From Candidatus Borkfalkia faecavium (GTDB lineage Bacteria > Bacillota > Clostridia > Christensenellales > Borkfalkiaceae), in assembly GCA_019114755.1 (NCBI GenBank), contig DXEW01000020.1:62001-126000 (forward strand): DNA of 64,000 bases, given 5' to 3'. The position numbers were made by a program, and so were the translations under genes. The notes under the pieces were generated by a model, which saw only the letters and a program-made list of their open reading frames with translations, did no database searches and was not told the origin of the DNA. This document shows positions 54,795-54,921 of the stretch, in pieces. The number at the start of each line of letters is the position of its first letter. Position 1 is the stretch's first letter.

Positions 54795-54808
54795 AAAGTA
54801 CACTTTTT
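54795..54808 (+). repeat. Inverted repeat IRL (aaagtacacttttt) of putative invertible promoter
   Basis: Perfect 14-bp inverted match to 54908-54921; itself a dyad with central AC. Confidence 0.7.
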
Positions 54809-54864
54809 CAGAAAAGCGGACAGAGGCCGTTTTCCGACACAAAGCGACATAAAGTTACCCTTTT

Positions 54865-54893
54865 ATTCTAACAAATATGACGATTCCTGTCAA
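54865..54893 (-). promoter_or_regulatory. Promoter on the minus strand, between inverted repeats, pointing away from the glycan locus
   Basis: Minus strand TTGACA (54893-54888), 17-nt spacer, TAGAAT (54870-54865). Confidence 0.6.
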
Positions 54894-54907
54894 TAGAATG
54901 GCGTCCA

Positions 54908-54921
54908 AAAAAGTGTACTTT
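54908..54921 (-). repeat. Inverted repeat IRR (aaaaagtgtacttt on plus strand)
   Basis: Reverse complement equals IRL; central dinucleotide GT. Confidence 0.7.

What the first reader, a model, noticed from the sequence alone, without database searches (positions are those of the whole stretch)
54795..54921. Putative invertible promoter (OFF orientation) upstream of the glycan locus
Perfect 14-bp inverted repeats (aaagtacacttttt 54795-54808; aaaaagtgtacttt 54908-54921) bracket a 99-bp segment holding TTGACA-N17-TAGAAT on the minus strand. It points away from ugd and the GT genes and into a strong hairpin terminator at 54739-54791. I saw no comparable plus-strand promoter in the segment. Each repeat is itself a dyad around a central dinucleotide (AC on the left, GT on the right), the arrangement expected of serine-recombinase crossover sites in inverted orientation. 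Inversion would aim the promoter at 54942 onward. That fits capsule phase variation by promoter inversion, as established in Bacteroides and other gut bacteria.
Basis: partly seen in the sequence, partly recalled or inferred. Interest (0 to 1): 0.82.

Follow-up and report, generated by a model that had tools for sequence, protein, structure and literature searches.

The report
Flippable glycan promoter with dead recombinase
A promoter that can be flipped like a switch sits in its OFF position in front of a cell-surface sugar gene cluster in an uncultured gut bacterium (Candidatus Borkfalkia), and the first gene of that cluster encodes a relative of the flipping enzyme that has lost its catalytic residues but is kept by selection, probably as a regulator of the switch.

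Summary
Two inverted dyads with cores at 54795-54806 and 54910-54921 (AAAGT-AC-ACTTT, AAAGT-GT-ACTTT) flank a minus-strand TTGACA-17-TAGAAT promoter; it is the only such pair in the 64 kb. One correction: the hairpin at 54739-54781 is a plus-strand terminator.

Relatives support inversion. In Borkfalkia and Coproplasma genomes, ten loci have this layout. A homologous promoter faces the genes in four and away in six, and every cross-state pair aligns inverted. The inner half-sites travel with the segment and the outer ones stay with the flanks. Four near-orthologous pairs from the intact-recombinase branch show the same segment flipped between collinear flanks.

It belongs to a single dead clade (support 100/99) under purifying selection (dN/dS 0.10-0.29). 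Nine of ten dead members precede surface glycan or secreted-glycosidase genes, against 0 of 65 intact relatives.

Best reading: a phase-variable glycan operon inverted in trans by an intact recombinase, with the dead one binding the same sites as regulator. Inversion is well supported by comparison but not seen in reads; the regulator role is inferred. New variant of a known kind.

The parts
54739..54791 (+). Intrinsic terminator (15-bp perfect stem, T-run on the plus strand) insulating the operon from upstream transcription
   Evidence: 15-bp stem, dG -36.5 kcal/mol, T-run after it on plus; a strong hairpin lies upstream of the left dyad in 9 of 10 dead-clade loci
54790..54811 (.). Left dyad TTGAAAAAGT-AC-ACTTTTTCAG, putative crossover site (centre 54800-54801)
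   Evidence: same core flanks inverted segments in relatives
54800..54916 (.). Invertible segment between the dyad centres (117 bp including both central dinucleotides)
   Evidence: homologous segments occur in both orientations: window, L002, L037, L038, L042, L066 OFF; L010, L025, L032, L059 ON
54865..54893 (-). Promoter TTGACA-17-TAGAAT with TG before the -10, pointing away from the operon (OFF)
   Evidence: homologous promoter faces the genes in L010 and L025
54905..54926 (.). Right dyad CCAAAAAAGT-GT-ACTTTATTGG, putative crossover site in inverted orientation (centre 54915-54916)
54942..55553 (+). Dead small serine recombinase (203 aa; S10Q, R68Q, R71N, R125L) with intact HTH; first gene of the operon. 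An alternative GTG start at 54972 gives 193 aa
   Evidence: PF00239; residues; fold; dead clade 100/99; dN/dS
55586..56788 (+). ugd, UDP-glucose/GDP-mannose dehydrogenase family (400 aa)
   Evidence: PF03721, PF00984, PF03720
57002..62077 (+). 1691-aa multidomain glycosyltransferase (GT group 1 and GT family 8)
   Evidence: PF00534, PF01501

Best explanation
This is a phase-variation switch. An intact small serine recombinase acting in trans cuts at the central dinucleotides of the two inverted dyads and flips the 117-bp promoter segment. In the state seen here the promoter points away from the operon, and the plus-strand terminator upstream keeps it silent. After inversion the promoter drives the dead recombinase gene, then ugd, then the glycosyltransferases. 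The dead recombinase keeps its fold and helix-turn-helix but should not be able to cut. It most likely binds the same dyads, is made only in the ON state, and feeds back on the switch by regulating the promoter, by competing with the active recombinase, or both. Supported by comparison: both orientations exist in homologous loci, exchange occurs at the dyads, the first gene has lost the catalytic residues and is under selection, and its tie to glycan loci is conserved. Inferred: which recombinase flips it, whether this locus still flips, and what the dead protein does once bound.
For: Both orientations of a homologous promoter between the same dyads, 21 of 21 within-genus pairs consistent. Inner half-sites move with the segment and outer ones stay. 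Direct flips between near-orthologous loci in the intact branch: L021/L026, L020/L022, L051/L064, L089/L098. Asymmetric central AC/GT in inverted orientation. Dead residues, one clade 100/99, dN/dS 0.10-0.29, invariant HTH motif among aligned members. Glycan neighbours 9 of 10 dead against 0 of 65 intact. Fixed dyad-to--35 spacing. Genomes with a dead member have an intact homologue more often than background (5 of 7 against 58 of 392). S10A resolvase still forms synaptic complexes (PMC4499144).
Against: No reads and no second strain of this species, so flipping at this locus is inferred. For the dead clade the opposite orientations are between different loci or species, not the same locus in two strains. 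The only intact small homologue in the own genome (L003) has no AAAGT dyads within the 10 kb examined, so the trans invertase is unassigned (the genome is about 90% complete). DNA binding by the dead protein is not tested.
Confidence: 0.72

Rival explanations
1. Fossil switch turned operator: the dyads were crossover sites of an ancestral active recombinase but inversion no longer occurs. They now serve only as fixed operators for the dead recombinase, which regulates transcription.
For: The adjacent recombinase is dead; the dyad-to--35 spacing is fixed as for an operator; both own-genome copies are in the same OFF orientation; no matching intact enzyme was identified for certain.
Against: Six of ten loci would then be locked with the promoter facing away from genes that stay under selection. 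Orientations differ inside both genera, so flips postdate the loss of catalysis, which maps to the base of the clade. Central dinucleotides remain compatible between the two sites.
Confidence: 0.14
2. Ordinary invertible promoter with a useless relic: the switch works through a trans invertase and the dead gene is a decaying former invertase without function.
For: One copy (L066) carries in-frame stops and one (L121) is truncated.
Against: dN/dS 0.10-0.29, an old monophyletic clade spanning two genera, at least 34 open close homologues, invariant HTH motif, strict link to glycan loci.
Confidence: 0.09
3. The adjacent protein is itself the invertase, with unusual catalysis.
For: It sits next to its sites, as cis-encoded invertases do, and its paralogue L002 still has Ser10.
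Against: S10 is Q, and R68, R71 and R125 are lost. S10A alone inactivates Tn3 resolvase. L002 keeps Ser10 but has lost R68, R71 and R125.
Confidence: 0.03

Closest known systems
Bacteroides fragilis invertible capsule promoters (Mpi global invertase; UpxY/UpxZ as first genes)
   Same: Promoter flanked by inverted repeats ahead of surface polysaccharide operons, flipped in trans by a global invertase; the first operon genes encode regulators (PMC12632263; PMC7315117).
   Different: Different sites and phylum. The first gene here is a dead recombinase and not a NusG-like antiterminator. The invertase is not identified here.
Akkermansia cps1 inverton
   Same: Invertible element next to a capsule locus, ON and OFF states (PMC13343947).
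   Different: Repeat motif CGGATT..AATCCG there, AAAGT-RY-ACTTT here; no dead recombinase gene is described in the passages read.
Hin, Gin and Tn3 or gamma-delta type small serine recombinases
   Same: Fold and domain order; dyad sites with a 2-bp centre; inversion of a promoter segment as in Hin.
   Different: Catalytic residues lost in the head gene; no Fis-type enhancer was looked for or found.
TldR: phage-encoded regulators derived from the TnpB nuclease family
   Same: Principle only: a mobile-element enzyme family recruited to regulate surface (flagellin) genes (abstract of PMC13418256; derivation from TnpB from own knowledge).
   Different: Unrelated protein family; RNA-guided rather than HTH-guided.

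Membership tests
Invertible promoter (inverton) | Promoter bracketed by inverted repeats | tested here: met
Invertible promoter (inverton) | Both orientations observed in homologous loci | tested here: met
   between loci and species, not strains of this species
Invertible promoter (inverton) | Both orientations in reads of one population | not testable with these tools
   no reads held
Serine-recombinase crossover site | Dyad with asymmetric central dinucleotide, copies in inverted orientation | tested here: met
   AC on the left, GT on the right; same core flanks flipped segments of intact recombinases
Active small serine recombinase (for 54942-55553) | Catalytic Ser10 with Arg8, Arg68, Arg71, Arg125 | tested here: not met
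   Arg8 kept; S10Q, R68Q, R71N, R125L
Active small serine recombinase (for 54942-55553) | Resolvase fold with C-terminal HTH | tested here: met
Bacteroides-type CPS regulation | Head genes UpxY/UpxZ | tested here: not met
   head gene is a dead serine recombinase
Bacteroides-type CPS regulation | Invertase acting in trans on several loci | tested here: inconclusive
   two loci with the same dyads in the own genome and one intact small homologue (L003), specificity unknown

The most novel reading that the evidence does not exclude
The dead recombinase is a dominant-negative or locking partner of the active invertase. Made only when its locus is ON, it occupies the shared dyads, alone or as mixed dimers, stabilises the ON state and keeps sister glycan loci from switching, giving memory and one-at-a-time glycan expression: a recombinase-derived counterpart of UpxY/UpxZ.
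Probability: 0.3. Interest if true: 0.86.

Novelty: new variant of a known kind. Interest (0 to 1): 0.7.

Why it matters
Invertible promoters in front of surface polysaccharides are known in Bacteroides and Akkermansia. Here the same logic appears in uncultured gut Clostridia (Candidatus Borkfalkia and Coproplasma) with a different site family and a new component: a recombinase that lost its chemistry but stayed as the first gene of each operon. If the regulator role holds, it shows how an invertase can become the transcription factor or brake of its own switch, and it gives a ready prediction of which sugar and secreted-protein loci vary in these little-studied commensals.

Tried and rejected
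Hairpin as a terminator for the minus promoter: rejected, the T-run is on the plus strand. Adjacent protein as the invertase: rejected on residues. AAAGT dyads around the intact L003 as proof of the trans invertase: none found within the 10 kb examined, so the trans enzyme stays unassigned; three large serine recombinases in the genome were not pursued. A whole-genome scan for AAAGTACACTTT with 2 mismatches was dominated by background similar to its control. An automatic inverted-repeat caller missed diverged dyads (for example L021, L037, L038), so these were read by eye. Literature searches found no dead small serine recombinase acting as a regulator and no study of phase variation in Borkfalkia or Coproplasma; only open-licence papers are covered. 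Metagenome contigs, where 35 contigs carry this exact protein, could not be fetched.

Full report
OBSERVATION. The repeats, coordinates and promoter are as described. The 14-bp arms are the cores of two longer dyads, TTGAAAAAGT-AC-ACTTTTTCAG (54790-54811) and CCAAAAAAGT-GT-ACTTTATTGG (54905-54926). The pattern AAAGTNNACTTT occurs only at these two places in the window, against 0.03 expected. Perfect 14-bp inverted repeats at such spacing occur in 1 of 5000 dinucleotide shuffles of the intergenic region, and no other paired dyad of this kind exists in the 64 kb. The one error is the terminator: its T-run lies on the plus strand, so it stops transcription from the upstream ABC-transporter genes and does not clearly stop the minus-strand promoter.

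THE NEIGHBOUR. The first gene after the repeats (54942-55553) matches PF00239 Resolvase. Its predicted structure (pLDDT 90) finds gamma-delta, Tn3 and Sin resolvases as its closest solved structures. Aligned with gamma-delta resolvase it has S10Q, R68Q, R71N and R125L. The intact relatives from the same bacterial family, about 75, keep these residues almost without exception, so this is not a general property. S10A alone makes Tn3 resolvase inactive, yet such protein still forms synaptic complexes (PMC4499144). The protein is therefore very probably unable to recombine but may well still bind and pair sites.

A DEAD CLADE. Ten dead members were found among 399 genomes of the family: four in the window's genus (the window, L002, L010, L025) and six in a second genus (L032, L037, L038, L042, L059, L066). 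Three of these ten keep or nearly keep the nucleophile position (Ser in L002, Thr in L042 and L066) but have lost the arginines. Named GTDB records identify the genera as Candidatus Borkfalkia and Candidatus Coproplasma. The ten form one clade with support 100/99. Pairwise dN/dS is 0.10-0.29 for Borkfalkia pairs and 0.17 for L032/L059; several Coproplasma pairs are saturated at synonymous sites. The HTH motif SSFYYH is invariant among aligned dead members. The 34 proteins with at least 62-63% identity found in metagenomes are close relatives. Glycan, ugd or secreted NAGPA-type genes follow 9 of 10 dead loci with readable downstream sequence (the ten counted here include the truncated L121 and exclude L059, which ends at a contig edge), against 0 of 65 intact relatives. 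The exception is L066, the copy with in-frame stops.

INVERSION. Between the dyads of the dead-clade loci lies a homologous promoter (TTGACA-17-TAnAAT in Borkfalkia, TTGCAA-17-TAAAAT in Coproplasma). It faces the operon in L010, L025, L032 and L059 and away from it in the window, L002, L037, L038, L042 and L066. With dyad ends trimmed off, every within-genus pair of opposite state scores higher as reverse complement and every pair of equal state scores higher directly: 21 of 21. Homology continues through the inner half-site up to the dyad centre. The -35-proximal half CCAAAAAAGT is on the right in the window and on the left in L010, while the left outer half (TTGAAAAAGT or TCGAAAAAGT) stays put. 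That is the signature of exchange at the dyad centre. In the intact branch, near-orthologous loci from different genomes have collinear flanks and a flipped segment: L021/L026 (136 bp), L020/L022 (165 bp), L051/L064 (131 bp at 98%), L089/L098 (129 bp). I conclude that this family of sites inverts. Because loss of catalysis maps to the base of the dead clade while orientations differ within both genera, sites next to dead members have inverted since catalysis was lost, which requires an enzyme acting in trans.

HOW IT PROBABLY WORKS. In the OFF state no good plus-strand promoter precedes the operon and a strong terminator insulates it; nine of ten loci have such a hairpin. Inversion in trans by an intact small serine recombinase would turn it on. 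Five of seven genomes with a dead member also carry an intact homologue, more than the background of 58 in 392 (p=0.0014; relatedness is not corrected for). The own genome carries one, L003, but it has no AAAGT dyads nearby and its specificity is unknown. The dead protein would be made only when ON and should read the same dyads. The distance from dyad centre to -35 is fixed (22, 22, 22, 21 in Borkfalkia; 36 five times and 35 once in Coproplasma), while the distance from the -10 to the other dyad varies by 11-12 nt. This suggests that the promoter-proximal dyad is also read as a regulatory site. Whether the effect is activation, repression or blocking of inversion cannot be told from sequence.

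KNOWN AND NEW. The switch logic matches Bacteroides capsule promoters, with a regulator gene heading the operon and a global invertase in trans (PMC12632263; PMC7315117), and the Akkermansia cps1 inverton (PMC13343947). The sites and the dead recombinase as head gene differ. I found no report of such a regulator in the open-licence library. I rate it a new variant of a known kind.

LIMITS. There are no read data and only one genome per species, so flipping at this very locus is inferred from relatives. The regulator role of the dead protein is inferred from conservation, not shown. The dead/intact comparison for glycan neighbours used homology to six query proteins taken from dead-clade loci and 3.4 kb of downstream sequence, which favours the dead group somewhat. 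ON/OFF calls rest on consensus promoters.

Noticed in passing
54800-54870 (minus strand), with L002, L010, L025: Downstream of the -10 all four Borkfalkia segments share a block like TTATGTCA-N-TTTTTGT; its role is unknown.
   Followed up: no
dead-clade loci: The distance from dyad centre to -35 is fixed within each genus (21-22 or 35-36) but differs by 14 bp between the genera, while the other side varies.
   Followed up: partly
P0010, P0017: Some dead paralogues look mosaic (one half like one paralogue, the other half like another), which suggests recombination between glycan loci.
   Followed up: no
L053 and L105: In both genera a dead recombinase precedes a large secreted protein with NAGPA (phosphodiester glycosidase) and purple acid phosphatase domains.
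   Followed up: partly
L021/L026, L020/L022, L051/L064, L089/L098: Intact small serine recombinases in this family carry their own flippable segment about 75-255 bp upstream of the gene, so they may phase-vary their own expression.
   Followed up: partly
L012, L013, L015 upstream regions: In the intact branch the flippable promoter appears to lie between the recombinase gene and a divergently oriented reading frame with its own ribosome-binding site, so inversion may alternate between two genes.
   Followed up: no
L066 (G077:C8:24029-24586): A dead recombinase copy with in-frame stops, 92% identical to L042 in the same genome, followed by non-glycan genes.
   Followed up: partly
57002-62077: One 1691-aa reading frame with glycosyltransferase group 1 and family 8 domains plus a long N-terminal part without a Pfam match.
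   Followed up: no
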